Of a stretch of 64,000 nt of DNA, positions 14,001 to 63,048 are shown one piece after another (position 1 is the stretch's first letter; the number at the start of each line of letters is the position of its first letter). Source of the DNA: Gordius sp. MW1 (Eukaryota > Nematomorpha > Gordioida > Gordea > Gordiidae). The stretch is taken from positions 744,001 to 808,000 of the forward strand of contig OZ038531.1 in the NCBI GenBank assembly GCA_964036665.1, given 5' to 3'. The translations under genes and the position numbers were made by a program. Below the pieces are notes generated by a model. That model saw nothing but the letters and a program-made list of their open reading frames with translations. It did no database searches and was not told the origin of the DNA.

Positions 14001-17000
14001 CCTTTTTATGTAAAGAAAAAACTTCAGTATATAGAAAACGAATTATTTAGAGTTTACTCGGTGCTGGCCAAAGGATTAATTTGCTGTGTAGACATGGTAC
14101 ATCGATCTGTAGCTATTCCGGTACCAAAAACTTTGTTGGGCCTTTGGGCAAAGCACCTTTTAATGTGGCTCATAGTGGTGCCCGATTTATGGGCCGGCCC
14201 AAGGTCTGGGCTTATGCCCAAGGCCCCTTTCAAAGCGTACCATTTGGAGCTGGGTTGAGTTTTCTTGGCAAGCAAGTACCGACGGGCAGATGAAAATTGC
14301 CTGGACGAGGGTGTCCTAAACTGTAAAATGTTGCTATTGAAAAATTTTGCTTGCGTGAGAGAGAAGAAATCAAGATTAAAAAATTTTATTAAAATTAACA
14401 GCTCCCCCGACCTTATCTATTCTACGGAGAAAAGAATAGTGGACGGCCACCGAAATCTAAAGTTAACAACTAGGAGGGATTCTTGTTGTACGATACAACT
14501 TTGAATCCTTTGCCGACTCTTGGTCATAATGAGATAGCTATTTGTATTTATAACTAATATTTTTTGTAAACTTTGTTTTCGTGAAAATAAACATTTTAAA
14601 TATATTTCGACCTAGTAGCAACCACGACCTAGGGTAATTAACGATCCGAGGGTGACGATTCCTTAAACAATTATCACAAATAAGTGCCTCAATTACATAC
14701 GCGACCCCAAAGAATTTTCATGCATTAAGCAAAAAATCGTATGGACATTGTAAAATCCACTACAATTTCCATCCATGGCTCTATCTATGCCTGCTCATTA
14801 ACTCTATATATTTTAGCATGTAATTTATACTAGTGTTGTGAAAACGGCTGGGCACTGCTTGGGCGACCTTTGATTTTAGACGACATAACTAAACACCCCA
14901 GCCAGTTTTACAATGCACTAATGTGTACAATTATTGCCAAAATTAACGCTTTTCAATAATTTTTAAAAAATTAATTTAATTATACTCTGGGCGCAGCTCT
15001 TTTTGTTGGGGTACTGTGCAATATTTTAGACCCGTCCCCCAGGGTGGTTGGAATGGTCGGACGGGCTGCTAAGCGAGGTGGTATGGGTTGGGAAAAGAAA
15101 TGACATAGCTTGAGAACGAGTTTAGGCAATTTTTCCGGATACCTTAGAATAACGAGTTGAAGAAAAACAAAATATTTATAAATCAAAATATCATTTTGTA
15201 AGTAATTTTGCTTAGTTTTCACGCAAAGTTTTCATTTAATTAAAATATAAAACAGTTTAGAATCCGATTTTTTAAGGAAAATTTGTGATATAATACATTT
15301 TTTAGATTAAAAACATCCCTAAAATCTTTAAAATTGTTATCAGGATGTATTTTAGAAAGAATTACTGTTCTATGATGAAAGTGTTGACTAATTTGACAAA
15401 ATACTTGGGTTCGGTGATAAACACTAGGCGACGCAATGTAGAAACAACCTAAAATCAATAAATAAAATTATATATTTATTAAAGAATTTATAATTTCTGC
15501 AAATTTTATTTTATGTTCATGTAAAGAATGATGTCAGATAGCTCCAAATTTAAATATGACAATCTATATGCAGCTAGACCTTACAAATCGCCTTATGAAA
15601 AATCCATATATATCAATGAATAAAATTAAAATTGTGTTAAAAAGTTAAAATTAACCAATAGTATATCAGAAGATTTTTGAAAGGCTTAAAAAGTTCATAT
15701 TAACTTTCTTTGACTAAAATTTAAGATAACTTAGAGCTTAAAATGCAAACTGTACATTGAAAAATTATTTTCAGCTTCATTGCACTTGCTTAGAGTATAC
15801 TATTCCAAAGCCATAAACCTGATAGTAGCTATATAAATATATATTAAATTTGTATTTAAATTATTCATTAATTTTATAAACATTTTATAAGTAAAAGTAT
15901 TTGAAACCTATAGGCAGTATGAGAATTTTATAAACAATGTATTCTGATAAGATTTCTAAAGAGACTCCATGCAATATTAATTATTTTTAATGTAATTATT
16001 GTTAAAATCATATAAGAAAATAAAAGAACCTCTGTAATAATTTCATCCATCATTTGAGAATCAATGGAGTGTAAAATGGTACGAAAAGATAAAACGTCCA
16101 GTAGTAAGATAATTCCCACAAAAACCCTAATTTTTAAGTTTAATTTCAAAATCAAAAATAATTTAAAAATTAATTAAGTTAAAACAAATTTACACAACTA
16201 AAATTTATTTGTCAATTAACAAATAATTGCAATAATAAATTGAACAACCTCATAACTTCTTGTGTGTCATTTTGACCATCTTGAAAGAATGCAGATAATA
16301 ATTTAAGGTTGGACAGAATTTCATTATGGATAAATTGACGATCACAATTCTTCTAAATGGAAAAAGAATAAGAGAATTTAACATCAAATTAATAAAATAA
16401 AACTAAATTAGGTAAAATTTTAAGTATAACAATTTTTTTAGATCACCAATTTGGAAGACTATATGAAAATTTCTTAAAATTTATTAGTAACATATAAAAT
16501 ATAATACCTTGTAGAACAATTCATAATTAGGTCTTAAAACATGGTCAAGTATGCAGGGCAAGACATCTAATAAAAATGTATCCATTTCAAATAATAATGG
16601 CTGTACATTTATTTTTGTAGGCATAGGTATATGTTCTTCTATCTTTTCATTATTTTCTTATGATATAATTAAATTTTAGGTGAGATAAATAGTTTACCAA
16701 TTATATTTTCTTTTGGACTCTGACAAATATATCTTTTAATCTCCAAAACTGGTTTCTCTTCACATCTTTTAAACAAATCAACATTTGAGTTTAAACATTT
16801 ATTCTTACAAACTAATGGGTTGTATAACTTGATCTCTATTAAATTCCAATTCTTTTCTAACATTATCAGTGAGTAATTTTTCTGGCCTTAAGATATATAT
16901 TAAATATGGCAAAATGTTTACTTATTTTTTATTTTGGTAGTAGCTGATCTAAGTTTTTTCAAGCAGCCTAAAATTTGCTAAAAAAATAATTTAAAATTCA

Positions 17001-19051: not shown

Positions 19052-22000
19052 TTAAAACAATTTTTGCATAAGATCAAAACAGCCAGTGCCCGTTTTAATT
19101 TCGCGTCCCATAACTATTCTGGCCGTCGGAGTTTCCAAGTCGTCGCTCGCTCCTAGAATAGTAACAAAATATCAATAAAAATCATTTATAATTTCCTATA
19201 AATTAAGTAATTTATATGAATTACAATTAAAATATAAATCAATGCATTTTGTATAACATCAGCCCAGAGCACCTCAAATAACCTAAATTCAAATCGCATA
19301 CTATTATATTGTAAAAGACTTTATACAAGAGCCTTTGTTTGGTATAAATTTGTTGGAGGAATTGTGTAAAAACCTGAGATGAGGGCATCTTTGAGGAAAG
19401 TAAAAGTTGATTCAAAGGACATTTTTAGGAAGGGTGATGCCTGGTTTGACATAGAGTAACGATTGAAAGGTCTGTAATAGCCGTCGAATGTCATATAATC
19501 AGAAATGAGAGATAGATGGCGGTAATCAACTTGTATTCCGTAAGCGGAAAACACCTTTTGCACCTCCTAACACCAAAATTAAACTAAAATATCGAATAAA
19601 GAAATTATTTAAAAATCAGTATACCAATCGTATAGGTTTTACTGGGTTTTACCTAAGTAACTTTTATGTTGCAAAAGTACACTTTTGCTAATGCTTATAA
19701 ATTAAATAAGACCAGAAAAGATTGTGGTAATATGATTATCACTTTCACGTCATGGACGTACAGGGGGTGGCAGTGAGGGACGACTCCCTTCCCCCCTAAA
19801 TCCAAAAAATCGTCAAAATTTAATATATTTATGACTAAAATTACTAAAAAATATTGTTTTGCCCCTCCCTAAATCATTATTGCCCCCCCCCTCTAACTCC
19901 AATCCTGGCTACGCCCATGTTTCACGTTATAATAATTACAGAAATAATATCTTAAGTACTTTTATACAAGTGGGGAAAAAATAGTGCCTCATTTTATATC
20001 TTTTTTTTTGCTAATAACAAGATTCTTAGCGCACTTTTATAATGGCATTTCTGCAGGCTTCGATGCCGTACGTTTCGAGAATTTGGTGCAAATCGTTGCA
20101 ATAAACTTTGTTGAGGTCCAACGATTTCCCATAATTAAAAATCTCCTTTAAACATTAAAAATAAAAATGTAAAAAATGGTAAAAATTGAATAAAATTAAA
20201 TGATAAAATTTAATCAACATTCAAAATGTCTAAATTTTATCAAATAAACATAATTATCAGAAAATAGATGTGAAAATTTTAAAATCCAATATAATATCGA
20301 TCCACGCTTCTATGAATTCAGTATATAGCATGTTTTTTTACACATAAAAACGTGCATGCAAAAATTTAGGTAAATAGATAAAATGAAGCCAAAAATTTAA
20401 AATATTGCGGTAAGAGGTATATTTTAGGAATTATACAAAATAAAGTTTGCATGAATTTCACTTTAAAATTAAATCTTGCCAAAAGTATTAAAAATTCTCA
20501 AAAAATACAAATTATTAATTTAAAAAAAATAAAAGGATTCTAACGGGTATATTAATGCCCTGAATTTGCAAGCTTCGACATTGAGTAGTTGTATCTGGTT
20601 CTGAAACGATAGATGATATAACACCGGGTATGCTGTGAAACAGGGTAGTTTTTATTTCTTTCTCTAGCAATACTTCCATATCAATTTTATTTTCCGATAA
20701 TGGTATCTAAAATATAATACATATAATATAAGTGGTAAATTATTTAAAAATAAAAATATTTAATTTATAAATTTACATTTTTCACGGTTCCAAAAACAGC
20801 TCACATATTGTTTTATCAAGTGAAATCGTTTAAAGGTCAAAAAGTGCAATGCAAATTGTCTATATTATTATCATTATATATATCTTTGCAGCGCGTTGAT
20901 TGAATCAAAATATAAATCCTAGCATTAATTGATTAATAATAGCTTTAATTTCAATAAAATTAATAAATAATTTATGAAAATTTAATTAAAGTTTAAAAAT
21001 TTCGTTATGGTTACTTGCAAGGTAACTTCAGCAGACCAGGGTTGGTCTCCACTTTCATAAGCGTAATGTGTTATGTATTTACTGATATCCAAAACGTTCT
21101 AAAAGTACAACAAAAAACCGTTATAATAAAAAATCATAAAAATTTTGAATTCAAAAATCAAAAACATGGTTTTCATACCTCAGATCATAGACGCATATAA
21201 TAGATATTTCAAATTAAATTTAGCAAATCTAAATATGAAAATCCTGCAACTTACAATGGAAAGTTTTAAGGTTTTAAAATATTTAGATTGACTAATCGTT
21301 TTCCCAATGATATATTTATAATTAAAATTAATTATAAATTTAGATGATAATAAATGATATTTTTTAATTTATTTAAAAATAAATAAAAGTAAAACCTTTA
21401 TCCTTTGTCGGTCAGTTTGTGAGCCAAAAGGTTCGTTTTTGATTTTATCTTTATTATCATTTGCTTCACTTTTAACCTTTTTGGAAGTCGAAACTTTTTT
21501 AGGAGAAGGAAGAGCAGAATCAGGATCATCAGTACCCAAACCGTCATCTAATATAATCCCAAAAGTAAATTTAAATTTAAAAAAACTTTTAAGTAAAAAT
21601 TTAATCAAAAATTCAGCATAATCAAATAAAAATTAAGATAAGTAAAGACTTGCCACATCTTTTAAATAAATTTTATGCAATTTATGGGCTCGTTTTTGGT
21701 TGTCCGTCCGTCCTGTCCAGCTTGTAATTTTTCAATAAGTGTTGTGGAGACTTATACGGGTTTTTAATGGCTGTGGACATATGCTCTATAAAAGACTTTT
21801 ATTATGCTTTCGCAAATAGACTAGCTAATGACCGCTGGTTGGCTTTATTTTTTCAACCTCGCCCGAGCCCAATTGCTTTAAAACATTCAAAGCTGCAAAA
21901 AATCATGTATAAACCTTTGGTAAAACAGGGACTTTTACGCTTGTGCGTAGCGCTATGAACGTCATCGTCCATATCAGAAACGCCGCTAGATGAGCGCGCT

Positions 22001-25000
22001 ACCGAAGAGCGTTTTTCATGAGCGCTTTCTCCTTCAGTATCGGTATCGTATTCTGAAGCTTGAGCGTCAAAACTTGCAGCGTCACCGTCAGAAAACGCTC
22101 CCATATCAGTGTTTTCATCTTCTGACGACACAGACGATTCGGAGGAGCTTGAAGTACGAGCGGCTTTTGAAGTTGACGCTTCTGCTTGAGCGTCATCAGT
22201 TTGAGCGTTGGCGTCATCATTTTCCCCTGCAGCGTTCTTATCAATGCCTTGCTCAACCAAGACCGCGCCCTCCAAAAAAATGCCCAGCTTTTTTCGACTC
22301 TCAAATAATCTGAAAGTTAAAGTGAAAAATAAAGAATTTTGCAAAGAAAAAAAATAACGCTATTAAATAAGCAAAAGTGAATAAAGTGTAAAATAAATAT
22401 TTTTAAAATTAAAGAAAAGTAAGATAAAACCAAACTAACATACCATTTTTTGATGTAAAAGAGACAAAAAAGCTATAAGATATTAATTTTTATAAATTAT
22501 GCGTTTTAGAGCAAACGATATAGGGACATTCCATGTCAAATCGATCATAAAAAGGCGTTTTTCGGCCGACCCCCTCAGAATTTTATAAAATTTGGTGGAA
22601 ATGTTAAAACTAGTAAAATTATTAATTTCCGAAAATTTTAGCTCATTTGGGCCATGGGCGCTCAAAGGTCGAAAATCGGCCATTTAAAAAATCGGGTTGT
22701 GACGCTATATTCAATAAAATTCATAAGTTATTGGCCCCCAAATCATAGAATCTTGTTGTAGTAATAGGTAAGACCTATCTTCATAGAAAAAAAATTTAAA
22801 ATTTTTTTTTTGTCGATTGGTCATCTCATAATGGTCGAAATGGCCAAAATGGCATAATTACTGTTGAACCCTCTCAAATCGTTTCAAATTTGAGACAAAT
22901 GTTTTATACTACCTATTAATCAAATTAAATAAAAGAGAAAGTTGGGCGGCCATCTTGAAGTGGTCATAAATTGCTAGAAATGGTATTTTATTTATTTGGC
23001 GCCAAAATGGATCTCTAAATATGTTTTTTTGCTCATTTAGCCTTCATATAATTTTAATATATCTATGATGCAAATATTTTTGCTATAAATTAACACCCCC
23101 CCCCACCCGCCATATTCCCTATCAATTACAATCAATATAGCGAGTGATTATTCTTCCCCGAATATGCTATAAATTAAAAAAAATTAAAAATAAACAGGTT
23201 TGTAAAATAGCCTAAAATAATTTACTTCAATATAGTTGTAGATACAAGTAGATATTTATTGATTTTTATTCGACATGTAATAATAAATATTTATAATAAA
23301 AGTATGACGGAGTGCATGTTTTCAAGAGCCTATAAAAAATTAATTTATCATTATTTAAAGTATATTTTACTTAAGGCAATAAGTTGTGTTGTCGCTTCAA
23401 GCATTTCCCTTTTAGATAAGGTATAAGTTCTTCCGGTTGTGGTTAAAGGTGATACGATTGTTAATATATCCAATTTATTGAGAGATAATTTGTGACATTT
23501 ATTTGGGAAAGCAAAAGAGTTTGACGGCCCGCATGGATGAAGCAAACTAACTATTATCTTTTCATCCTCATAATTTTTATCTATAACCAGGGCTAACCAC
23601 CATTTTGCTATGCAATTTATTTAAATAATATTTTTATAGCTATTTTACGAGCCTGTTTTTCACATAAATATTTATTATTACATATGTCGAATAAAAATCA
23701 ATAAATATATACTTGTACCTACAACTATATTCAAGTAAATTATTTTAGGCCATTTTACAGCTGTTTCTAATTAAAAAAAATTAAATTTATAGCATTCCGG
23801 GAAAATTAATCATACGCTATTTTGATTGTAATTGATAGGGAGAATATGGGGGGGGGGGGGGGGTTGGGGTGATAATTTATAGCAAAAATATTTGCATCAT
23901 AGATATAAATAATATGAATACTGAATGAGCAAAAAAAACATTTTTAGAGATTCATTTTGGCGCCAAATAATAAAATAACCCTTTTAACAATTTATGACCA
24001 CTTCAAGATGGCCGCCCAACTTTTTCTTTTATTTAATTTGATTAATAGGTTGTATAAAACATTTGTCTCAAATTTGAAACGGTTTGAGAGGGTTCAACAG
24101 TAGTTATGCCATATTGGCCATTTCAGCCATTATGAGATGACCAATCGACAAAAAAAATTTTTTTTATTTTTTTTCTATGAAGATAGGTCTTACCTATTAC
24201 TACAACAAGATTCTATGATTTGGGGGCCAATAACTTATAAATTTTATTGAATATAGCGTCACAACCCGATTTTTTTAATGGCCGATTTTCGACTTTTTAG
24301 CGCCCACAACTCAAAAAGTAGAGGCTCAAATGAGCTAAAATTTTCAGAAATTAAAAATTTCACTAGTTTTAACATTTCCACCAAATTTTATAAAATTCTG
24401 AGGGGGTCGGCCGAAAACGTGGCGATTTGACATGGAATGTCCCTATATCAACAAATAAGTAAAATGAGAAAAAATTCTGTAATAAAAAGGTTGCCTAATA
24501 TCATAATTTTTCCATTTCAATTGCACACAAGTGATTTTTAACCTTTCTAATGATTATTTAACTTTTATAAATATTTATCATACACATCCAACTTCCCAGA
24601 TCCCTTAGGACTATGAAAATGGCATCAAAGATAGGAAAAATACCATTGAAATCTAAAGATGAAATTTAAATTGCCTTTATACTTTTTCTCTATAATGATA
24701 AAAAACTAACGCGAAACCTCAAAGAACAGACCCCTGGCCGATTTTCTTAAAATGAAAAGTTTCCCGAACTTATAATTTGAATTATAACTAAAAAAGCTCA
24801 CCTTTAAGGGGCGAGGGTCTAGTCCTTATAAAATTCCCGTAATTCTCAATATTTTTAACATATCTGATTAACGCCATTTTTAGACCCAACACTTTGTCTT
24901 ATCCACCTCTCTAAAGTGAAAAGCTCATTTTATGGTTGTCTTCTAACTAGAAAAACGCGAGAAAAATGAAATAAAAAACGTAAGGTAATGTAAAAAAAGA

Positions 25001-28000
25001 GAATATTTTACTTAATATTATTCAAGCAAGAATCTTCTTTCTTGATAGTTTGCACCAATTTAGGCAACAAACGTCGTTCTAAACCGGCGTGGATGGAATT
25101 TTTATCGCAAGTCGGCAGCAATTTTTTCAGGCATTTGTAAGGCAAAAGGTTGAAACGTATGCGATAAACCCAGAAAACTTCCCTATTTTAATCGCAAAAA
25201 ATAAAACTAAGTTCAAATTTTCTTAAAAAAAAGGTTCTGTCATAAGAAAATTTGACCACTAATAGTCATTTCAAACCACAATTTTTAATTTTGCAAATAA
25301 AAGATATCTAACCTATTTAGTCTTACCTTAAAAACTCATGATCAGATCCAAAAAAGTATGCAATTTTTAATAACTTCCCTATTTTAAATCGCAAAAATTA
25401 AAATGATCTTCAAATTTGATTTAAAAAAGCTCTGTTTCATAAGAAATTTTGACCACTAAGAGGGATTTCAAGCCACAATCTTTAATTCTGTAACTAAAAG
25501 ATCTATAACCTATCTAGTCTTACCTTAAAAACTCATTATCCGACCCATTTAGATGGATATCTGTAAAAAATTATGCAATTTCTAAAAATCCTAAGAAGTA
25601 AAATTCCGTTTTAATGTGGTCAAAATACTTTATAATTTACCTCAGCTTACTACAGTGGTCTGAGAGCACGGATTCTTCGACTTCTACTTGCGTAATCACC
25701 TAATAAACCAAACACGGTATTAAAATAAAAATGTTTGAAATTTTTCGAGTGGCAGATATTGAACATTTAAATCTCCCGAGTTATATTAATATAGAAATTT
25801 AGTAATCACCAAAGGTAGCTAAGAATTTACTTTCAAACTCTCAATGTATAAACAACCTAAGCATAAATATAGCTTTCTGAATTTTTCAAATAACAATTTT
25901 AATATGAAAAACTCAAAAAACACCAAATTTCCTATCTCTAGCTCAAGATAGACCCCTTAAAGGAGCAAAAAAAGGAGTGGCGCCAAGCAAATTGCCTCTA
26001 TAAAATGAATATGTTCAAAAGAATGCGTTCAATTTCACAAATTTTCACACTTGGCGATAGAAGATTTGTTGAAAATTTCTGGAAATTTTATGGATTTTCT
26101 TCCCTTTAGCTGCTGCGGATCGAAATGGTGCCGACATCATGGGTGTTTTGAGATTCCGCGTCGCTGTCATAAGGATTTCCCTGAGCCTGGGTATGCCCAG
26201 CGTTACATTCATCTCCCCACGTCCAGCGAAATGAAAGGTATTTAGGGTCATTTGCGTCGAGGGTTCTCCTATACTCTGAAATTAAAAATATTCACGAAAA
26301 ATATTTTCCTTATATGTATAAGAGATCGATCAACATAGTCGTGTTTTGACATGACAATTAATAATATGAAGTTTATGACTAAGATTAACATCTACATAGT
26401 GTTTGTATTGCGATCGTATTAATAAGTGAAATTGATCCACAAATAATTGACTCATAAGATCAACCGGCAAACGTTTGCAGATTCTGGTCGATTTTTTTGA
26501 GGCGAACATGAATTTTAATAAATTCCTCTTCCATTTATTAATGCCAAAACTAAAATTTTACCCATGAATTTGCAAGTTGTTGCTGCAACTTTTGCAGCCA
26601 ATATTTCAAAACTTGACGTATACCCGTAAAAAAGTCTACCATAATCGGCAAACGGTTCGCCGGTTGATTTTACAAGTCTATTCAGTGTTGACTAGTGTAA
26701 GATTATCCTTATTATAAATAACAACTGCGGTTAAGTGTTAAAGCGATTACATTAATTATACAAACACAATTTATGCACATTAATAAATGCAAGTAGAACT
26801 GTAGAAATGGCATCATAAACGTTGATTTCATTTAAATATATTAGAATCTTATTTCATCTATCAATACGTTTTAATATTAAAAGATTCAAGTTCACTATTG
26901 ACCAAATGATTGGTATTCGTATCTAATCAAAATTAATAATATATAGTGAAGCATAGCCAATCCTATTATTAGCAATTTCATCAATCATCTAGTTAGATGT
27001 TCAAGATAAATGACAAATTTTGAAACAATTACTAACTCTAGTTTAGAAGTCCAGCATGAATATTTCCTTAAAGTTTTTTGCATTCTTTACTCAAGTTTCT
27101 TTTAAGCTTGATTTAGACAAAATCAAACTTAACAAGAAAAATCACTAAATATAATAGAGCAGCAACTCTGCGCGAAATGATAAAATAACCATGGGGTCAA
27201 ATAGACCTCAAACACACCGTATAAATTTATATTTTGCAAACCTGAGCGCACAACAATCCTACTGCCTCTCCGGGCTCTGCCATTGATTTCATGCTTTTCA
27301 AGTAGATCACGTCTTCCAGATTTTTGAAAGACGAAGGGAAATCTTTACGGGGGTAGGGGGAAGAGTTTGACGAGTCGTTCTGTATCTTAAAAACATATAA
27401 ATTAAATTTCATAAATTAAAATACCAAAAATTACAAAAAAATAGTAACAAAATTTTCATTTTCGCTTTCAATAGTCCTCCCCGTTCAAGCATAATCTCAC
27501 CTAGTTAACTTATATAATTTAAAAAAAAACTTTCAAATACATAGAGTTAAAATTGAGAAATTTGGAATATTGCCCTTAAAAAACATAATGTTAATTATGG
27601 AAAAATAAAATTAACGAAATAAAAGTTAATTATTAGGTATAAGAAAGCAAAAAATTGAAAATTTAACGATTAAAACGGCGCTTTGGTGTTTGATAGAATT
27701 CAAAAACTTGTTTAAGGAGGGTTGATTGTGTTTCAAACAAGGGTTCGTAGCCATCTATTCTGCTCTGGAGGTTAGCAGAAACTGAACCAAAAACCTTGGC
27801 AGGGGCGTACTGAGATATCAGAGGGGGTGGCATTTTAGAATTATTGCTTTCGATTGATTCAATTTCCATTGGTTGAAATCTATTAATTTATCGAATATTT
27901 AAAAAATTTAAAAAAACTATTTTAATATTATTAATATGGTTAAAGGTCTTTTGCTTTAGAGGAAAAATGTGTAATTAAAAGATTTTAACCTACAAAATTT

Positions 28001-51048: not shown

Positions 51049-51129
51049 AATATATTATATGGGATGGTATGTATTGCACTGGAAGTAGATCATAAGTAAC
51101 ATAAATATTTAGGGATATAAAAAATTTCT

Positions 51130-54100
51130 TTAATGTTTGCATTTAGTTTTGGAATTATCATTTTTGGAACCACTTTGTTTAGCAGAAATCCTATGTCTCA
51201 GCATTTCGCTCAATTCCTTTATCCGCACTTCCTTCTAAAAGTAGTAAACAAAAAAAATCATATTTTATCGTAAAAATTGAAATAGTTCGCACACATTCTA
51301 ACAATGGTCGCACACACGTACTTCGGTGATTTGTTTTTGTATATCATCATTCTCCGTAACTAATTGTTGATATTTATCCTCTTCTTCTTTGCTCAGCAAA
51401 TTACCGGTCGTCACGTCAAAAGTATCAATGTCCATTTTAAACTTCCACACGTAAATTATCTGAAAAACAAATTAATGTGTTTACCATGAGCATTAAATAC
51501 CACGAAGAAAAGCTATTACAAGCCATAGAGATGAGAATGATAGGGTGGAGCTTGGGGTACTTTAAGCTCGACCATATGACGAATGACTTTCTCATGACAG
51601 AAATGGGTATCAACCTATGGCGGACATGATTAACTGAAATCGGCTAAGGCGTAATGGGCATATACTGAGAAGGGACACGAATGACGTAAATCGAAAAATA
51701 CTGGATATGGAAGTACCGGGGAAGAGAGGAAGAGCACGACCTCGTGTCACGTGGAAAGGGCATGTGGACAAAGTTATGAGTCTAAGAAATCAAGATATGG
51801 CACTTACCCGACCAAGATGGAAGAAACTCATTTAAAACAAACCCCACGACTGTGGGACCAAATACTTGATAAAGAAGAAGAAAGCAATCATCACTGAGAA
51901 AGTTTCAATGATATATCAAAAAAATAGGATTCAAGGCTTGAAATTAAATTGAGAGTTAAAAAAAGTTAGCTTAGAGATTTGAGAAATTATTTAAAATTCA
52001 TTACTCCACTAAAATAAATTTGAAAGGCCAGATGGGGAGTTAATAAAACAGAAGTTACTTTGATTAGGGCAGATTATGAAGCTAGTTAATTTTATCTAAT
52101 AATGTTATTCCCTTTTTTCATCTAGCTATATTAATTTTAAACCACTCGATTTTAAAATATCTTACTTAAAATAGACGTATAAGGCATAACCAATACCCAT
52201 TACAAGCTATTTCCTAACATCTAAATTAAAGGATCTAGATGAATGGGCGTAGCCATCATTGAAATTAGAGGGGGCAATAATGATTTAGGGAGAGGCAAAA
52301 TGATCTTATTTCGATATTTTAGCCATAATTTTAATAAATTTCAACAAATTTTTGGATTTAGAGGGGGCACCGTCCCCCCCTGGCTACGCCCATGTCAGAT
52401 GGATATTTTTTGAAAAAATCGAGCAGTCTATTAGTCAATGTAGGTAAAAGGCCAAAAAACGGTAAAAAAATAAACACTTTCTCCGTTTAAATTGCGATAA
52501 AAATATATTTTAAAAAATATACCTTTGATCCAAATATCAAAGCAGTCGCTAAGAGACAAGACACGATGGTACTGATGGCTACGAAAGCGTAACAGGCATT
52601 ATGATTGTTCACTATGAGTATAGTCATGGGTACCGTTATCAAGCAAAGCACCTAAAATCATATCACAAATAAATAAATAAATCATAAAGTAAACAAAATA
52701 ATGTTGGAAATTTATTTGAAATAAAAAAACAACAAAGCCGATCGATTAGAGAAATAGCCGAAATTAAATAAATTCTCCGAGATTTATAATTTTGTATGTC
52801 AAAAAATAAATAATAAATCAATATTTCATTTCCATTAATTTACGGCAATATTGTAAATGGCGACGCCAGCAAATTTAGAATCGTTGATTTGCTTGATAGC
52901 TATGCGACGAACCTCGTAGCTCAGAAACAGTCCGAATAACAAGAAAAGACCCTTGGCCCCGTACAGCAATGCTAAATGCGGGGCAAAAAATGTAAAAACA
53001 TTAAATTATAGGGGGAAAATATAAATTAATGATTAGGTAGGAGTATTTTTCCTAACATGCATGTCTAATAGTATTGTAAAAACGGCTGGCTTTTAATTGG
53101 TCGACCTATTAAACATAATTTCTTGGTCGATCTTTAGGCTTGGTCGAAATTTGAAAAACAGACTAGATGTCGACCAAACAAAATCCAGCCGTTTTTACAA
53201 CATAATTGCCTAATTTTTTGTTTAGGTAAACAACCATTATAAAATTCAACAGAAAATTTAGATTTAATTTAGGTGTAATATCTTTATCGGTAAGACTAGA
53301 TTTACAACTATTTGATAGGTTGTCAATTCAGAACATAAATTATTATTAAATTTTTATGAATTCTTGTGACGAATTTCTACAAAACAAATTATAATTTTCA
53401 GATTAAAATTAAAGACCCAAATAAGATATTATTATTAAAATTACAAAATATGCAATGGTACCCCTGCCCTTTAGTTAAAAATGGTTTATTGAGCAATTCC
53501 GAATAGACGCACTAAAAAAATAGTCTGTTTCTTCTTTTAATTATTCCTTTCAAACACAAACAGTTAAACCCTTCCTTAAAAATGAGAATTCATCGTAATA
53601 ATTCCTCGCTCCTTTCTAAGTCTTATTTTAATATGACAATTTACATGCATTGGCTGCCAATTCTAATTTAAATTCAGTAATTTTCTAATTTTCTGGCACT
53701 CCAGAATTTCCAAAAAAAGAACTGGCAGAGTTCATATAGCAAAAACTGTAAAGCTCCTTTTAAGATGGCTGACCTTAAAAGGCGAAGAATAGCAAGGAAA
53801 TAATAGTATTAATATCCCATATCGATCCTTTCATACTAAAAATCCACGGCAATTATTATAAAAATACAAGTTCGACAGGACAGGACGGACGACCAAAAAT
53901 GAGCTCATAAATTGCAAAAGTGGGTAGTAATTAAAAATTGAATTTATGGTCTCACCCCCAACTAAGATAAAGATCCATCTCTTTTGAATGTCTAAACTAA
54001 TCGTAAATCATACCCAAAGATACGACAACAATTTTAACCCACCATCTTCTGCCAAAGTTCTTAAAACAATTAAATACCGAGATATTACTCATTCTAAAAT

Positions 54101-57100
54101 TTTTATCCCCACACCTGTTCAGCCAATATTTGGCAAAAAACATTAGCTTATACTCACCCAGCTTTATTTTAATTCAAAAAACTTTTAATATTTTAATAGC
54201 GCAACAAACAATTATAAATCTTTATCTGACACATAATGGCCCTAGTTGCCTGCTGAAGAACTATTTTAATAAGAAAAAAACTTAAAAATTTCATCGCAAG
54301 TAGGAGTTTACCTAACCAAAGGTTGAGTTTTTTGCACATGCAACGTTCAACTTGGGGCAGCACTCTGACCTCGTCCCCATCTATCACGTGGTCGATCATG
54401 TGAAAATCTTGAAGAGTGCGATGCAATGGGTCAATCCCTTGCCATATTCCCAATAAAATCAAATCAAGCGCCAATGCCAAGGGTATACATAGGTTGGAAG
54501 TCCATGTTTCTCCTTGCTTAATAAGTAATATAAAATTAAAATTAAATCGTAACAAATGATAGCAAGTTTTAAAAAAACTACTTGAAAAATCTATAAATCC
54601 ATATAGTTCCATTAATTATCTCGTATTCAATGCATTATCTTTAAATTTATTCAGCATTTTTGGGGCATTCATAGCAATGTTAAATGTAATTTTATAAAAG
54701 CGTATATTCAAGGCAGGTGTTAATGTTCGATGCCTCAAATATAACTATTTTGTTATTTAACCGCCTATAAAAAGGTCAAACATTTGCTTCACACGAGGAA
54801 ACACGATTTAAAATTAAAAGGGACTAATTTTAAGCAAATAAATATATATTTAAACTAATTTATTCATATTGTAACAAAATCTAACCTTTTAAGACCCTAA
54901 AGAAGCAGATAAAATTTGCTTGTAAACGCAAATAATTTACTATAACATTAAAAATGCCAATCTTAATGGCACAAAACGGATTCAAAATACCTGAACTTCT
55001 TTTTTGACCGTAGTCCTTAGGTTGTGCACCTTCCATACTTTGGTAAACAATGCTCCGTAAGTCAGACTAAATCCAAAGCTCATTAGCCAAAGCCGTGCCT
55101 AAAATGACAAATTAAACGGATAAAAGCCATAAATTAAGGTGTAAGAATTTAATTATAAATTTTTAATTTATAAATGTATGGTAAATTACAGTCACAAAAC
55201 ATATTGGTTTACGATATCCATGAAAAAAAATATTTTTTTCAGCGGAAAAACAGGATGGAATATATATTTTTTTTAAACCGTAGCTTCCAAAGTTATAGAA
55301 AACGTACCAAAAATCGTATTTAGGGACGTTAAGGATTACCCCATTAAAACACATACATACAATAAATTAGCCTAATAGATTAGCCAACTAAAATTTCAAT
55401 AAAACATTGGATCAAAATATATATTGTGTTAAACTAAATATTAGTTCCATTTTTAAAAAATTGAAAACATTATTTAAAACCTGACATAAAGCGGTGTAGG
55501 AATGAGGTAAATATCTTCCATCTAAGCCGAACAAAATAGTAGAAACTAGGCACATCACATTACCCACTAACATGATGTCATTGATCCAAGGCATCGACAT
55601 GGCTACAATCCTACAAAAATTATTATTTGTAATAACACAATTATAAAATTAAAAATAGGAATAAAAAATTGGGTTCGGGCGAGGTCGAAAGCCAACCAAC
55701 GGTCATCAGCTAGTCTATATGCGAAAGCAAAATAAAAGTCCTTTACAGAAGCATAAGTCTCCACAGCCATTGATATCCCGCATAAGTTTCCACAGTAATC
55801 ATTGAAAAATTACAAGTTGGACGGGACAGACATGACGGACGGACAACCAAAAACGAGCCCATAAAGTGCATAGAAATTTATAGGGGGGGGGGGGCAAAAC
55901 CCTAGAGTTACCCCATGTTAGAGCAAAGCCAATCCCTTAGCTAAACAATTTAATTCGACCCTAAACCGTAGATTAATAATGTAATAGCGTCGCAAACAGC
56001 TAGTTTTTGCATATTTACTAAGTAAGGTTGATCCCCATTTTTGATAAGATTTTCCACTATGTCCGCATTCCTGCAAAAAAAATTGCAAAAGTTATGGGAA
56101 AAAGAGACTAATGAGATCATTACAAGAAATATCAAAGTCCCAATTTTAATAGAGCATCACAATGAATTCGTTTTGCAACCCTTAATTTATGCCTCATCAA
56201 ACATGGCCGCCTTTTCAGCTGTTCCCCACTTTATTGCATCAATACTATAAATTTCCCCATTTTCATTTCCTCAAATGTTAAAATTCAAATAGTTATACGT
56301 AGCTTTGTGTGACAGGAGGTTTTCTCTACGAGTTATCATCGGTACATGTATAACCTGCGATGGGCGTAAAGACGATTGAAAATTAGGCAAGAAACGGCAG
56401 CTAGGATTCCAAAGCCCGCAGCCACGCACATGCTAACGAATAGTCGGTGAGAAATGACCAACAGCTTTGGTATAATCCTGGTCCTATCGGGTGGTGGACC
56501 ATTACCTAACGTTAATTCCAATGCAAAAATAATGTATAAACATATACGTTTTGTCGAAGATGGATTATAAAAATGATCTAGCCTTAGTTTATATTGTGGG
56601 TTATAACTTTCAAAGAATTCCAATCTAATATTTTATTTTGTCCCTGGGGCCTTGTTGTCTAAGCTTGGTGGGACTAATACGACTTAACCACTTTTAAAAT
56701 ATTGATAATCTAAAAGATAAACTAGATGTTTAGGAAAACGTTTATACTGCTATTGGGTACTTAACAAATTTAAAACTGAATCCTTGTATAACCATAACCA
56801 TTGATCCGAATTTAAAATCCTTTCAAACTATATAAGGTAGTGTCGTAAAAACGGTTGGTTTTTGTTATGTCGTGGTTTAACTAAGACGAAGGTCGACTGT
56901 GGTCTACTTTCAAATTTCGACCAAGCCTAGAGGTCGACTAAGAAAAACCGACCAAAAAACTCCTGGTCTGTTTATGTTTAGTCTTGTAAACCTAAAGGTC
57001 GACCAAACAAAGGCCAGCCGTTTTTACAACACTAATATAAGGTGACAAAAATACTGATTATAAATTAAAGAAAAATGAAAGTACCGGGCCATTCGACGGC

Positions 57101-60100
57101 ATTCAACCAGGTCAAATTGTTGTCGTACTGTTGGTAAAAGGCCAACTTCTTGTATTTTCCATCTATATTTGAGAGGCAGAGAAGCAATTAAAAGAGAGAA
57201 GCATACATTTTTAACATTAAATAGCATGTAATAGAGTTTATTAACGAGAACGGATCGAGTCAAGTATAAACTAAATCGTGATTACAAAAAATTTTTCTAC
57301 AATATATTAATGCTCCAAGCGAATATTAAATTAAAAAAATTTCCTTAAAATTATATTTTAAAACATAAGGAAAGTTCTAAAAAAACTTGGAAACAACAAA
57401 TGTTTTTAGCATGTCAAAATTGCCTTTAAAATCTTTGACCAATTTTGAAAATACATAGAAAATCTGAAAAAAATATCTTATTTTTCTAAAATCCGTGACA
57501 AAAAAATCGGTATATAAAAATTCGTTACTATAATTCAACAACATATAACGTTAACTAAGGGCAGCAATTTCTCGCTGTGTTAAAGTGATCACAATCATAC
57601 TATTGGCATGCTGGAAGGCTTTTCAGAAGAGGCACATCAATCGTTAAAAAATGTAACATTTGAATACATTATGAAATTCTGATATTTTTTTGGAAGTAAT
57701 TGGAAAATAGCTCAGAATTCTTACAGACTCTCAATAATAATATGTATTAGTTTCGTAAAAACGGCTGAGTTTTGTTTGGTCTTTGGTTTTAGTTGACTAA
57801 ACTTGAAGAGAACAAATATTTTTTGGTCTGTTTTTCTTAGTCGAGGTCGAGTAAACATAAAGAGACCAAAACCTTAGGTGTGCTCATGTTTAGTCGACTA
57901 AAACCAAAGGTGGACCAAACAAAACCCAACCGTTTTTACAACACTGTTATGTTTACAGGATTTAAATATAGCAAAGTATAGGTGGCGTGTTAAATTACCA
58001 ATCATTTGTTCGAGTAAGGTCCAAGCAATCCTGTCTCCGCTATCAGTAAAAGTAACCATTCCCTAAAACAAAACAATAAATGCATTTTATAAATATTTAA
58101 AATTCCCCCCCCGCCTATTTGCAAATAGACAATGTCCTTTATAAAGACGAAATATTATAATAATTATAATTTGTTTTTAACACAACATTCCAGATAATAA
58201 ATCTATGAAGAATAACATCGAGATTCAAAAATATATAATTTAACTTTTCCGCAACCTATATTACCACAAGTCCCCGCATAGACTAGAGAGACTGCTCATC
58301 AACTTTAAATAAGCGTACCGTTTTTCAGCCATTTTGAAATGTGCACAAATAAGGGAAGTTATAGTAATTTTGGTTAATTAAGGTATTTTTAAAATATAAA
58401 AATATTTAACTAGTTAAACATTAAAAACAGCATTATTAAAATATATATCATTTACAAAATTCATAAAAATAAATATACTGTGAAGATGTGATGTTAAAGC
58501 CATTTGCATTTTATTAAACAAATCCTTCATTAACATACTTTTTTAATTATTAACTAATGAGGACACTTTTCCTGGTTTAACAAAGGGGATAGGTACACTG
58601 CAGAAAGACATAAAAGATTGTTAAATTCAAAATGGTGGATTTAATGATACACTTTTTCCCATAGGGCAGTCTAGGTAGTCTATGGTTAACAAATCAAATC
58701 AATTTAAAACATTCAAATTAAAACGCGAGAGAGGTAACTATAAAACCTTTATTCGACCGAACTTACAATAAAAAAAACACAAAAACAACTTAAGAAAAAA
58801 CCATTTTACTAATGCAAAAAAAAAGAAAACTACTTACGGAAACTCCAAAAAAACGGGTTTGACTCATACTATCGTATATAACTTTGGAAATTTCGGTATT
58901 TTGATAAGTGAAATTTTCCAAGTACAAGTTTCGATCCTTCAAAGTATACATAGTTTTGTTGAGGGCAAAAGCTAAAGCCCATACGGCATCGTAAGCTAGA
59001 GGAGCTTCGGCCACACCAGAGACCGTATTGGGGTCTATTCCCTTCGCCTTGAACCCGTCCTTTAGCTTTTTCAAAAATTGCTGCGCCGTCTTATTTTTGT
59101 GTATAGTAAAGAACGCGGTATTAATATATAATTCCTAAATCTTAAAGGAATTTTCTGCTCAAATGCAAGCAATTTGTATTTGAAAAATATGTATATATAT
59201 CTAATAAGGATGTAATATTTTTAACTTAAGTATTACACGTGGTTAATTATATTACAAAACCACATTTACACAACCCATTAAACTGCAAAAATAAAAGATC
59301 TGTGATAGCCATAATTAATAATTTTAGGGTCATCTATAAATTATTTAATACTCATTCAGCTTTGTCATGATCAAAATATCGCTATTTAACCAAATTATTT
59401 AATAGATATCTAGTTTGTGCTTAGATGTAAATGGTGGATTGATGAGAGGTCTTCATATATATAAACCCTAGCTCAGTGATTTTGTTTTTTTTGTTTTTAA
59501 ATCATTATTTAATATTTTTCCTTTTTAGGCGATTTAGAGACATTTTAGCATTGTTTAAATGAAAGAGAGCAGAAAAAACTTTATTTTGATAAAAAAATCT
59601 TTTTTTTGCAAGACTGACATGTAATAAAAGTCATTATACCTTCAATTATAACATTGTAAACATTATAAATTCAAACTAAAGTAGCCTTAAAAATAGATTT
59701 TACCTTAAGAAAGACGACAAAAAAAACACTCTAAAATTTCAAAAAGTTTTTTGCACCCCATGAGGGGGGTAAAAATTACCCGGCCAGATACGGTTACGGT
59801 ATCGTCTTGATTCAGCATCAAACTCTCTATAGAAAAATGGTATTTCAAAACTTCGGCTAGTTGGCGAGAGGTACAATTGGTATTGGCTTCGGCATTTTCG
59901 AACCAATTATCGGCATACCATCCCAGGATGAACCAAACATACCTTTTCCCATACAAACCGTTCTTGTAAACCTGCAAAATCCTTATAATTTAAGCTTTGT
60001 AAATTTAGTAATTTTTCCAAAATTTTCTACTGCTAAAAAAGACTTAGTTGTTAAGATTTACACTCAAGATTCAACAATTCGACCGACAAATTGTTTGCAG

Positions 60101-63048
60101 ATTTTGGTAGAGTTTTTCTCGGTGAATACGAAAATATTTTTACCCTTTTCCCTATATGTCAAGTTTTTATAATATTTGAGGTCAAAGTTGCTAAAACAGC
60201 GATTTTGGCGTTATTCAATCGTCAATAACATGCAAATTAATCGGTAAAATTTTAATTCGGTTAAAAAAAATTAATAAAACGCGCAAAGCTGGTCGAATGG
60301 GCTAGCTGTTAAATAACGCTATATTCAAACATTTAGAATAGAAATCATTTAAAATAAGAATGATAAAGTGGGTGCTTAATAGAAATTCCACGAGATTGCT
60401 CTAAAAATCATCGATGTCTTAATAAAATTAGAGAAAAATAGAGCAGGGAAGCTTTTACATTATAAAATTTGTAGAAATTTTACAATACGCAGTTACTAGT
60501 GTCGTAAAAAGGGGTGGGTTTTGCTTGGGACCTTTGGCTTTAGTCGATTAACCATGTGCAGACAAAAAGTTTGGCCAAAAAGCCTTTAGTCAGTTTATAA
60601 TTAATCGACAAAAACGAAAGGTCGACCAAACAAAGTCCAGCTGTTTTTACGATACTACATGACAACATTCTGTAGGAAATGGCACTAAGAAGACCTTACT
60701 GAATACTATTGTAAAATGTAAACAATATTCTCCATTTTAATGTATCCAAACTCAAACTCAACAACCATCTAAATATACTTGGAAACGTAAAAGTAAAATT
60801 TATAAATTAAAGTAACCAGTTTGATTCAGTACTGGTTTAACCTCGCAAAAGACTTGTTGGGCAAAATTGTCGTAAAAAATTCCCACTATAATTCTCGCAT
60901 CTTGACGCTTCAAATTTTTAACCGCGTCGCTGGGATCACTAATAAAACTTTGCCGTGTCATCACTTCCATCCCCGCACTTTTGAGTCGCGTCTCCAAATC
61001 TTCGGCCGTCTAAACGTTTAGCAAAAAACAACACAAAATCAAAATTATCTTATTTTTTGAGAAAAAATGAGTTTAGTAACAGGAATAACGATCAAAATCA
61101 TTGGTTGATCGATTGCAAAAGTAGGATTTGGCTAGAAAAAACTTTGCCCGAACCCGGCCCGGTTCAATTCAATAATCAAAATAACCGGCCCTATCATGAA
61201 TGAATCATTAGAGCTCCTCGAGCCGAAAGCAGTAATTTCGTTGGATTTTCCGAACAAAATTTTAATTTAATTCTCAAACTTTTTTTGGACAATACCTACG
61301 AATATATAAATAATATATAGTTCCAAATGAAAAACCGTACAAATTTTACACGAAAAAAGAATAGTATCTATATTAAAAAATTTCGCCCATCCCAAAAATC
61401 TAAATCCAACACAGTTGCCCGGCCTGTGGGCCAGGTCGGGTCGGGCCTTTGCAGGTCTCTGACACTTAATTCCTTCAATACATAAAACCCCTAAAACTTT
61501 TAAAATCTCAAAAACTTTAAATGATTTTTGTAGACTAAAATTTAAAGTTTAAAATTGTGTACAGATGTGAATAGTTCTTGTAGTTCTTGCAAAATAGCTA
61601 TTCGTTTCCAACCCCACATTTTAAAGAGCTTGATACGGGTTGGATTATGCAATGATTGTGATGGGTGAGTTCGAAAAAATGTTGGAAATCTTTTACGATT
61701 CGATAAGGCTGGTGAGCTTGACCCATAAGATATCTATATATAAAATGAAAATAATAAAATTAAAATGTTTAAATAAATAAACACAAATATGACAGCTATT
61801 TAGGTATTAAAGTTATAGTTACAAAAAATTATAGACTTTTTAAATTGTCTACTTATTATAGCTTTATCAACTATGTGATTATATATATAAATAATAATTA
61901 AAATAAGAAAAAGATTGAAATATTTTTAACATAATATTGAAAGTTCCTAAATAAAATTATAACTACTATTCAAATTACAAAAAACATGATATTATGACAG
62001 TGATTAAAGTATTAAAGTTAAACATACAAGAATAATAAAAAATTTAACACTTCCACTATAGACATTAGGTTTTATAAAAATTACTCTAGCTAGATTTAAT
62101 AAAACAATCCATAATATTGGGAAGATAATTAAGTCTATTGTCAAGTTGCTTTAATTACTATATCTTAAAGCATTAAATGCACAAATTTTTTTTTGCTTAT
62201 GTAAAGTATTTGTGAAAAATAGTTTAAAAATATTATTAATTTAACTACTTTCAAAAAAATATGCAATTGTTTTCTATTTATATTTAAAGCTTTATATATA
62301 TTATATACAAAAAACTTAAACCAAACAAAGTTCTTTCCTAAATTTAATCCATTGAAGGCAAAAATTTTTAACCTTAGTTTTTAAAAAAACAGATTTATAA
62401 TATTTTTTAATATTTAAGCCTCGTATTATTTTAATGGATTAATATAGAAGTAAAAAGCCATAGTAAATATATTTACTACGACTAAATTCCACATATGTGC
62501 AGCCTCAGCTATTGTAGTTGAAACAGAACTGCAACCAGTCATAAGCATTATCTTGGTTGGTTTGTTATATAGCAAATCATACAATATTCTTGTACCCAAT
62601 CCTGGGTGACACTAAAATTATGATAAGCAATATTCAACAACACTTTAATTTATTTAAGTTTAAAAACTCTAAAATATTTAAAAAATGTATGTTTGTAAAA
62701 ATGTGCTATAATAAATTACTATTAATAAATGAGAAAAATTTTAACTAATTTGTGAATAAATTGTACCCTGCTATCATTATAATGAAATTTAATATAATAT
62801 CCTGGTACAATATCCTTGCGATCATTGATGTCTTTTAAAGCCATTAAGGCTGCTGGCAAACAACCTTGCCCACCAGGCCAACCTCCAGACATTGGGAATG
62901 TGCCACCAATGTGTATGCATTTGCGACCATCTGAAGATTTTTGAACTGCTTGGCATTCCCTATCCTCATTGTTTAATGCATCTAAACTAATCTTCTCATA
63001 TAACGTGCATACTATAACAAGTAAAAATATCACATATTTAGCAAACAT
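51130..63048 (-). CDS. GABBR1: Metabotropic GABA-B receptor subunit 1
   Basis: Class C G-protein-coupled receptor subunit that binds GABA at the cell surface and pairs with GABBR2. Sixteen exons in unbroken phase give 811 residues: 63048-62767, 62611-62477, 61733-61563, 61009-60842, 59971-59780, 59089-58838, 58062-57999, 57162-57085, 56505-56355, 55610-55481, 55098-54991, 54516-54312, 52971-52844, 52651-52523, 51459-51322, 51234-51130. A signal peptide ([17 protein letters not shown]) leads straight into the Venus-flytrap domain, with no sushi domains. The known GABA-contact segments are present: [55 protein letters not shown]. Transmembrane segment 1 starts near [14 protein letters not shown], followed by the other six, with [24 protein letters not shown] and [11 protein letters not shown] conserved. 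The C-terminus is a short coiled coil ([23 protein letters not shown]) with an RHR tripeptide but no RSRR retention motif. Introns hold four MITEs and a LINE tail. Confidence 0.95.
51500..51870 (+). mobile_element. LINE 3' fragment of the same kind as the element at 7.8-11.2 kb
   Basis: Plus-strand translation, with stops, includes [13 protein letters not shown] and [16 protein letters not shown]. These are the same C-terminal tail motifs as in the large LINE (RLRWFGHVER, GKKPRGRPKSTW). It ends in AAAGAAGAAGAAAG, the same GAA-type tail. It is a 5'-truncated copy in a GABBR1 intron, opposite in orientation to the gene. Confidence 0.75.
52242..52394. repeat. GGGCGTAGCC palindromic element (copy 5)
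   Basis: The ends are AATGGGCGTAGCCATCATTG and TGGCTACGCCCATG, with AATAATGATTTAGGGAGAGGC inside. It lies in a GABBR1 intron. Confidence 0.8.
53069..53204. repeat. TAGTGTTGTAAAAA MITE family copy
   Basis: The ends are TAGTATTGTAAAAACGGCTG and CAGCCGTTTTTACAACATAA, with internal GGTCGACC arms. It lies in a GABBR1 intron. Confidence 0.8.
53833..53922 (-). repeat. Fragment of the GGACAGGACGGAC family
   Basis: ACAAGTTCGACAGGACAGGA, CGGACGACCAAAAATGAGC and TCATAAATTGCA match the ends of the larger copies. It lies in a GABBR1 intron. Confidence 0.65.
55671..55880 (-). repeat. Dispersed repeat, GGACAGGACGGAC family (inverted copy)
   Basis: It has the same blocks as 21677-21874 in reverse: GGGTTCGGGCGAGGTC, GCGAAAGCAAAATAAAAGTC, GACGGACGGACAACC and ACGAGCCCATAAAGTGCATAG. 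It lies in a GABBR1 intron. Confidence 0.75.
56838..57034. repeat. TAGTGTTGTAAAAA MITE family, full-length copy
   Basis: A near-perfect 197-bp palindrome-like element from TAGTGTCGTAAAAACGGTTG to CAGCCGTTTTTACAACACTA, with several internal GGTCGAC segments. It lies 50 bp from the exon ending at 57085. The TA at each edge could be a target-site duplication. Confidence 0.85.
57748..57945. repeat. TAGTGTTGTAAAAA MITE family, full-length copy
   Basis: A 198-bp copy with ends TAGTTTCGTAAAAACGGCTG and CAACCGTTTTTACAACACT and internal GTCGACTAAA/TTTAGTCGAC. It lies 53 bp from the exon ending at 57999. Confidence 0.85.
58263..58690. repeat. CATAGACTAC terminal-inverted-repeat element, full copy
   Basis: The left end GCATAGACTAGAGAGACTGC and right end GCAGTCTAGGTAGTCTATGG are inverted relatives. 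The interior GCCATTTTGAAATGTGCAC is shared, inverted, with 34962-35396, and a fragment recurs near 36495-36535. It lies in a GABBR1 intron. Confidence 0.75.
60497..60657. repeat. TAGTGTTGTAAAAA MITE family copy
   Basis: The ends are TAGTGTCGTAAAAAGGGGTG and CAGCTGTTTTTACGATACTA, with an internal AGGTCGACCAAAC arm. It lies in a GABBR1 intron. Confidence 0.8.
61138..61472. repeat. GC-rich repeat remnant with CCCGGCC/GGGTCGGG ends
   Basis: GCCCGAACCCGGCCCGG at the left and GGGCCAGGTCGGGTCGGGC at the right enclose AT-rich sequence. Related strings occur near 49217-49800. The outer TTTGCAGGTCTCTGA resembles hAT-type termini, but I could not define both ends. Confidence 0.4.

What the first reader, a model, noticed from the sequence alone, without database searches (positions are those of the whole stretch)
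14986..63048. Two exon classes inside single genes: A/T-ending codons at the 5' end, G/C-ending codons further downstream
In three independent genes the early exons use A/T at third positions and later exons switch abruptly. By hand count, POLR1A exon 4 has about 16 of 71 G/C-ending codons and exon 6 about 69 of 125. TICRR goes from 8 of 34 (16352-16249) to 46 of 87 (14320-14058). GABBR1 goes from 14 of 45 (62611-62477) to 26 of 56 (61009-60842). The breakpoints fall near 39.3-38.8, 15.4-15.1 and 62.5-61.0 kb. The switch goes with intron size: small introns before it, large repeat-filled ones after. Phase and homology continue across the break, so this is not a contig join of unrelated DNA. 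A sharp low-to-high GC3 step 5' to 3' in neighbouring genes is unusual. Mutational gradients from transcription, local gene conversion, or different intron-invasion histories are all possible causes.
Basis: partly seen in the sequence, partly recalled or inferred. Interest (0 to 1): 0.75.

Follow-up and report, generated by a model that had tools for sequence, protein, structure and literature searches.

The report
CpG-starved starts of three animal genes
The first one to two thousand bases of three genes in this AT-rich animal genome have lost most of their CG dinucleotides, the usual scar of DNA methylation inherited through the germ line, and this together with a local AT shift explains why their early exons use different codons from the later ones.

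Summary
Three stretches of 1.3-1.9 kb at the gene starts (38791-40340, 15433-17340, 61702-63003) have CpG observed/expected 0.15, against 1.01 in the rest of the window. TpG and CpA are raised, and 42 equally AT-rich windows elsewhere never fall below 0.69. Introns inside the deserts are depleted too, 2 CpG against 20.8 expected; a retrotransposon and the later exons are not. Best explanation: germ-line CpG methylation confined to the 5' part of some gene bodies, as measured in Nasonia and Daphnia. CpG loss accounts for about 44% of the GC3 gap. The rest is a broader AT shift that also reaches introns and POLR1A amino acids, and in two exons the shift and the CpG loss do not coincide. In these three genes all nine introns under 160 nt lie in deserts, though a neighbouring gene has one of about 86 nt outside. 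Methylation itself, the species and its DNMT genes could not be tested.

The parts
38791..40340 (-). CpG desert 1: POLR1A from late exon 1 through intron 5
   Evidence: 2 CpG in 1550 bp, 23.7 expected from its base composition, o/e 0.08; best 1300-bp scan window, log10 p -8.3, reached in 0 of 2000 null runs
15433..17340 (-). CpG desert 2: 5' part of the TICRR (treslin) gene
   Evidence: 4 CpG in 1908 bp, 26.0 expected, o/e 0.15; scan log10 p -6.4, 0 of 2000 null runs
61702..63003 (-). CpG desert 3: GABBR1 exon 1 through intron 2 and the start of exon 3
   Evidence: 4 CpG in 1302 bp, 18.9 expected, o/e 0.21; scan log10 p -4.8, 21 of 2000 null runs
39304..40464 (-). POLR1A exons 1-5 with introns of 32, 37, 43 and 44 nt
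   Evidence: models; GC3 0.27, 0.26, 0.23, 0.23, 0.15
38797..39303 (-). POLR1A intron 5, 507 nt, the desert's last element; CpG returns 6 bases into exon 6
   Evidence: 0 CpG, 4.5 expected; CpG positions listed
38422..38796 (-). POLR1A exon 6, first exon of the second class
   Evidence: GC3 69/125, 26 CpG, o/e 1.26
19055..38003 (-). POLR1A exons 7-27, CpG-normal as a group; GC3 falls again towards the end
   Evidence: exons 6-27 together 229 CpG against 214.5 expected; two-step GC3 fit. Exons may be missing in introns 17 and 20
62477..63048 (-). GABBR1 exons 1-2
   Evidence: GC3 0.29 and 0.31, CpG o/e 0.33 and 0.21
61734..62476 (-). GABBR1 intron 2, 743 nt, last intron of the desert
   Evidence: 1 CpG, 5.9 expected
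61563..61733 (-). GABBR1 exon 3: low GC3 but near-normal CpG, a place where the two signals part
   Evidence: GC3 15/57, CpG o/e 0.89
52523..61009 (-). GABBR1 exons 4-14, second class
   Evidence: exons 75 CpG against 76.2 expected; GC3 0.38-0.72
16030..16882 (-). TICRR 5' exons found (ranks offset), introns of 41-155 nt
   Evidence: GC3 0.16-0.31, 3 CpG against 10.1 expected in exons
15449..16029 (-). TICRR first long intron, 581 nt, last intron of the desert
   Evidence: 1 CpG, 6.6 expected
5125..15448 (-). TICRR later exons, second class
   Evidence: 99 CpG against 109.1 expected in exons
7800..11220 (-). non-LTR retrotransposon in a TICRR intron, control: CpG-normal
   Evidence: CpG o/e 0.93; RVT_1 E 9.4e-34

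Best explanation
Two layers are superimposed. Layer 1 (pattern shown, cause inferred): in the germ line of this animal, CpG sites are methylated in one block at the 5' part of some gene bodies, starting about 120 bases after the POLR1A start codon and running 1.3-1.9 kb, through introns as well as exons. Methylated C decays to T, so CpG became TpG or CpA on both strands and codons with a CpG-creating third base were lost. Layer 2 (pattern shown, cause inferred): the same neighbourhood is AT-rich and free of repeats detected by self-comparison. The likeliest cause is weaker GC-biased gene conversion where recombination is low, a link reported for germ-line-methylated honeybee genes. Later exons, outside the block, kept CpG and a higher GC3.
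For: CpG o/e 0.15 in the three deserts against 1.01 elsewhere; GpC is not depleted (1.54 against 1.26); TpG and CpA 1.16 against 0.95; 42 composition-matched windows outside range 0.69-1.30. The three strongest scan windows in 64 kb are the three deserts, reached in 0, 0 and 21 of 2000 null runs. With blocks set by GC3 alone, low-block exons still have CpG 6/22.1, 9/19.5 and 3/10.1 against 229/214.5, 75/76.2 and 99/109.1. CpG-dependent third sites 5/115 against 321/620; Arg CGN 4/16 codons in deserts against 95/150. Introns inside 2 against 20.8 expected, outside 743 against 752. The retrotransposon (0.93) and the 5' regions of the neighbouring genes (0.70-0.91) are not deserts. Precedents, passages seen: Nasonia methylation almost only on the 5'-most 1 kb of coding exons, clusters averaging 1.2 kb (PMC3794928); Daphnia exons 2-4 (PMC6097596); honeybee germ-line-methylated genes with low crossing over and strong gBGC (PMC4406589).
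Against: No 5mC data and no test for DNMT1 or DNMT3. CpG decay accounts for about 44% of the GC3 gap; 56% is at CpG-independent sites, and this part is not significant for desert membership once flanking intron GC is included (t -1.67). The signals part at POLR1A exon 1 (GC3 0.27, CpG o/e 1.00) and GABBR1 exon 3 (GC3 0.26, CpG 0.89). The excess of TpG+CpA, 91, is larger than the estimated 59 lost CpG. Nasonia and Daphnia introns are nearly unmethylated, while introns here are depleted. With strict settings an HMM called only the POLR1A desert. Desert edges were set at CpG positions, so their exact o/e is biased low.
Confidence: 0.75

Rival explanations
1. Regional base composition alone: gene starts sit in AT-rich, repeat-poor DNA, later exons in GC-richer repeat-filled DNA, and exon GC3 follows its surroundings.
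For: GC3 follows flanking intron GC in all 55 exons (rho 0.65) and in the 44 non-desert exons (rho 0.38, p 0.011); desert introns average 0.165 GC against 0.281. POLR1A exons 22-24 in AT-rich DNA are also low.
Against: It does not predict the CpG loss: 42 equally AT-rich windows have CpG o/e 0.69-1.30. Desert membership still lowers GC3 after flanking GC is included (t -3.31).
Confidence: 0.15
2. Exon definition: exons between long introns carry more GC so that the splicing machinery recognises them, exons between short introns do not (differential GC architecture, recalled, paper not read).
For: Over all 55 exons GC3 correlates with the shorter flanking intron (rho 0.46, p 0.0004).
Against: The correlation vanishes outside the deserts (rho 0.02, p 0.90, 44 exons). 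It explains neither CpG specificity nor CpG loss inside introns.
Confidence: 0.06
3. CpG-blind deamination or repair bias tied to transcription starts (R-loops, deaminases).
For: Deserts lie at gene starts and 56% of the GC3 gap is not CpG-dependent.
Against: CpG is hit far more than other contexts, and there is no consistent strand preference: coding-strand TpG/CpA o/e 1.18/1.09, 1.22/1.17, 0.99/1.35.
Confidence: 0.06
4. Selection for codon usage or weak mRNA structure near the start of translation.
For: Low GC3 lies at the 5' ends.
Against: The block spans several exons and introns over 1.3-1.9 kb, the introns are CpG-depleted too, and POLR1A amino acids shift with it.
Confidence: 0.02

Closest known systems
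5'-biased gene-body CpG methylation of Hymenoptera (Nasonia vitripennis, PMC3794928, passages seen; Trichogramma, PMC5960102, passages seen)
   Same: Block of 1-2 kb at the 5' coding region with clusters averaging 1.2 kb, CpG-poor, in conserved genes; transposons rarely methylated.
   Different: There methylation is on exons and only 0.7% of intronic CpGs are methylated; here introns up to 743 nt are depleted as well. Here the block also has tiny introns, no detected repeats and a broad AT shift.
Daphnia gene-body methylation (PMC6097596, passages seen)
   Same: Maximum at exons 2-4, fading further into the gene, low at the start of exon 1.
   Different: Near-zero methylation in Daphnia introns.
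Honeybee low-CpG genes with reduced crossing over and gBGC (PMC4406589, passages seen)
   Same: Germ-line-methylated sequence with low CpG o/e; recombination-driven GC offers a cause for the second layer.
   Different: There genes are compared with genes; here two states lie inside single genes, with a break within about 100 bases of an intron end.
Schistosoma mansoni intron-size gradient, small 5' and large 3' introns (recalled; my searches did not bring up that paper)
   Same: Very small introns at the 5' end of the gene.
   Different: I know of no linked CpG desert there; not checked.

Membership tests
Invertebrate 5' gene-body CpG methylation (inferred from its scar) | CpG depletion beyond base composition, GpC unaffected | tested here: met
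   CpG 0.15 against 1.01, GpC 1.54 against 1.26
Invertebrate 5' gene-body CpG methylation (inferred from its scar) | gain of TpG and CpA on both strands | tested here: met
   1.16 against 0.95; per desert uneven, GABBR1 coding strand 0.99/1.35
Invertebrate 5' gene-body CpG methylation (inferred from its scar) | block begins after the start codon and ends within about 2 kb | tested here: met
   POLR1A block starts 123 bases after the ATG and ends at 38791; GABBR1 exon 1 keeps 3 CpG, at 62819, 62924 and 63004. TICRR start not known
Invertebrate 5' gene-body CpG methylation (inferred from its scar) | conserved genes marked, lineage-restricted ones not | tested here: inconclusive
   3 of 3 long conserved genes have a desert, 0 of 4 other gene regions tested do (o/e 0.70-0.91); small numbers, GABBR1 is not a classic housekeeping gene, and the SOUL gene is itself a conserved domain family
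Invertebrate 5' gene-body CpG methylation (inferred from its scar) | transposons not methylated | tested here: met
   one element tested, CpG o/e 0.93
Exon-restricted form (Nasonia, Daphnia) | introns spared | tested here: not met
   2 CpG against 20.8 expected in 12 desert introns
Invertebrate 5' gene-body CpG methylation (inferred from its scar) | 5mC present; DNMT1/DNMT3 in the genome | not testable with these tools
   no genome held for the window, no methylation data
Differential-GC exon definition (recalled) | exon GC rises with flanking intron length | tested here: not met
   rho 0.02 among 44 non-desert exons; rho 0.46 over all 55 only because of the deserts

The most novel reading that the evidence does not exclude
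In this lineage the germ-line-methylated 5' domain runs unbroken through introns and stops at the end of the first long intron, and the same edge limits intron growth: inside it introns stay at 32-155 nt and free of repeats until the last one, beyond it they swell with transposons. Methylated 5' chromatin would then shape gene architecture, base composition and even protein composition (POLR1A exons 1-5 have 41% F/Y/M/I/N/K against 24% in the aligned human chain, while exons 6-13 have 26% against 25%).
Probability: 0.2. Interest if true: 0.7.

Novelty: new variant of a known kind. Interest (0 to 1): 0.45.

Why it matters
It turns an odd codon-usage step into a readable record of germ-line methylation at single-gene scale, visible without any methylation data. 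If the coincidence of methylation edge, intron size and repeat exclusion is general in this species, it makes testable whether gene-body methylation limits where introns can grow, and it warns that codon-usage and amino-acid comparisons within one gene can be driven by methylation and recombination rather than by selection on the protein.

Tried and rejected
Simple monotone 5'-to-3' gradient: rejected for POLR1A (two-step fit). Exon definition by intron length: rejected outside the deserts. AT-richness alone as cause of CpG loss: rejected by 42 matched windows; these windows overlap one another and are not independent. Contig join: not supported, the homology alignments run across the breaks. 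Strict two-state HMM: called only the POLR1A desert and 0 domains in 40 simulations, so I used a scan statistic. In that scan the fourth window, 45963-47262 around the SOUL gene, log10 p -3.0, is within chance (723 of 2000 null runs). First call of the 1-kb ratio test was weak: 5% of simulations reached 0.24 and the lowest was 0.11. Claim that short introns occur only in deserts: true for the 52 introns modelled in three genes, but the plus-strand gene at 2.0-4.6 kb has a likely intron of about 86 nt outside any desert, so the rule is not absolute. Species identification: not achieved; no genome is held, no tRNA and no Rfam match in the window. Rows left out: 2 POLR1A introns (17 and 20) were left out of the splice-site count because exons may be missing there; TICRR introns were also left out of that count. 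Papers: one search on methylation and intron length in insects, one adding transposons, one on methylation domains and first long introns and one on GC3 by exon rank listed no paper that I recognised as reporting this coupling; only titles and abstract beginnings were seen for most of their rows.

Full report
What was checked. The window is 64 kb of AT-rich DNA (31.5% G+C); its gene content and splicing say animal, but no genome is held for it, so all tests are inside the window. I built exon models for POLR1A (27 exons), GABBR1 (14 exons, 3' end not reached) and TICRR (14 exons, 5' end not found) from open frames, splice signals and homology. POLR1A matches human RNA polymerase I subunit RPA1 at E 2.4e-253 over the 1099 residues given, GABBR1 a GABA-B receptor subtype 1 at 2.3e-240, and TICRR matches the Treslin_STD Pfam domain at 3.6e-05, exactly at its cutoff. 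TICRR exon ends are less certain than the others.

The step is real. A step fits better than a constant or a slope in all three genes, with permutation p of 0.0022, 0.0064 and 0.0012. In POLR1A a second, downward step after exon 15 improves the fit further (AIC 2216.1 against 2237.9), so 'low then high' is not the whole shape.

The hidden feature is CpG. In 1-kb bins CpG observed/expected is 0.14, 0.22 and 0.24 in the three bins starting at 39001, 16001 and 62001, and 0.59 or more in the other 61 bins. Deserts defined at CpG positions have 2, 4 and 4 CpG in 1550, 1908 and 1302 bp. Because such edges are chosen after the fact, I repeated the count on blocks set by GC3 alone: low-block exons have 6 of 22.1, 9 of 19.5 and 3 of 10.1 expected CpG, high-block exons 229 of 214.5, 75 of 76.2 and 99 of 109.1. 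A scan with 1300-bp windows puts the three deserts first, second and third in 64 kb; 0, 0 and 21 of 2000 simulated windows sets reach their values. GpC is not depleted, and TpG and CpA are raised, 1.16 against 0.95. Forty-two overlapping windows elsewhere that are equally AT-rich have 0.69 to 1.30. This is the recognised scar of methylated CpG (established knowledge; stated also in passages of PMC8821070).

Shape of the domain. The POLR1A desert starts 123 bases after the start codon and ends 6 bases inside exon 6. The GABBR1 desert ends 32 bases inside exon 3 and the TICRR one 16 bases inside the exon that starts at 15448 (edges, exons). In each case the last intron of the desert is the first long one of the gene part examined: 507, 743 and 581 nt with 0, 1 and 1 CpG against 4.5, 5.9 and 6.6 expected. 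Edges in AT-rich introns are known only to about 100 bases, so 'ends at the splice site' is approximate. Of 52 introns modelled in the three genes, the 9 shorter than 160 nt are all among the 12 in deserts and none is among the 40 others. The plus-strand gene at 2.0-4.6 kb, however, seems to have an intron of about 86 nt and no desert. Repeats found by comparing the window with itself cover 0 of 4760 desert bases and 7473 of 59240 others; single-copy repeats would escape this test.

How much of the codon shift is CpG. Of 581 desert codons 139 end in G or C, of 2724 others 1237. At third sites where a CpG could arise the figures are 5/115 against 321/620; at the rest 113/445 against 833/2021. 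Setting the CpG-dependent sites to the outside rate would raise desert GC3 from 0.239 to 0.333, setting the others would raise it to 0.360, against 0.454 outside: about 44% and 56% of the gap. The second part follows flanking intron GC and, with that included, is no longer significant for desert membership (t -1.67), while total GC3 still is (t -3.31). Whether flanking GC is a cause or a further effect of the same process cannot be told here. Long desert introns have 0.18-0.21 GC; repeat-free intron sequence outside has 0.278. In POLR1A the shift reaches the protein: exons 1-5 have 41% F/Y/M/I/N/K against 24% in the aligned human chain, exons 6 to part of 13 have 26% against 25% (Fisher p for F/Y/M/I/N/K against G/A/R/P 1.2e-4 and 0.93). 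GABBR1 exons 1-2 shift little (30.5% against 25.8%).

Where the reading strains. POLR1A exon 1 has normal CpG but low GC3, and GABBR1 exon 3 likewise, so the AT shift is wider than the CpG loss. The TpG+CpA excess of 91 exceeds the estimated loss of 59 CpG, so part of it has another source. In Nasonia 0.7% of intronic CpGs are methylated (PMC3794928) and in Daphnia introns are near zero (PMC6097596), whereas introns here are depleted; a comparison of arthropods found exon methylation higher than intron methylation in most species, with little difference in two crustaceans (PMC7343188). The case here is therefore a variant of the known 5' pattern, not the exon-restricted form.

Mechanism. Shown: block-wise CpG loss with TpG/CpA gain at the 5' part of three gene bodies, introns included, a retrotransposon and later exons spared. 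Inferred: methylation in the germ line as the cause, since only germ-line decay is inherited. Inferred with less certainty: reduced recombination and GC-biased conversion in the same block as the cause of the wider AT shift, by analogy with honeybee, where germ-line-methylated genes have low crossing over and gBGC is strong (PMC4406589, passages). Not shown: any role of methylation in keeping introns short.

Verdict. I give 0.75 to methylation as the cause of the CpG deserts and of a substantial part of the codon step, and 0.2 to the bolder claim that the methylation edge also limits intron growth.

Noticed in passing
POLR1A and GABBR1 introns, e.g. 40308/40275, 37326/36851: 5' splice sites are very weak: of 37 donors counted, only 8 have G at +5 and the sequence after GT is mostly A or T at +3; acceptors mostly end TAG (25 of 37 have T at -3). 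My site choice favoured GTAAGT-like donors, so this is not an artefact of the model.
   Followed up: partly
40276-40307, 40111-40147, 39818-39860, 39560-39603: Introns of 32, 37, 43 and 44 nt, near the lower limit known for animal introns (limit recalled).
   Followed up: partly
about 55960-56072 (-): Between GABBR1 exons 9 and 10 (my numbering) lies an exon-like frame resembling the start of exon 10's domain but ending in a stop; possibly a decayed or alternative exon. Seen by eye only.
   Followed up: no
7818-11073 (-): Non-LTR retrotransposon with reverse transcriptase (RVT_1 E 9.4e-34), in several frames, inside a 4.2-kb TICRR intron.
   Followed up: partly
22493-22683, 28232-28381 (-) and 29962-30156 (+): Repeated frames starting [10 protein letters not shown] in introns of POLR1A, part of a repeat family of about 1 kb (self-hits 22517-24458, 28213-30156).
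   Followed up: no
2061-4596 (+): Cysteine-rich secreted-looking protein in at least four exons; 0 Pfam families for the typed assembly at E 1.
   Followed up: partly
46545-46754 (-): Weak SOUL heme-binding domain match, E 0.00037, 21 bits against a cutoff of 27.
   Followed up: no
25011-25187 (-): Possible missed POLR1A exon in the 3.8-kb intron between exons 20 and 21, judged by eye.
   Followed up: no
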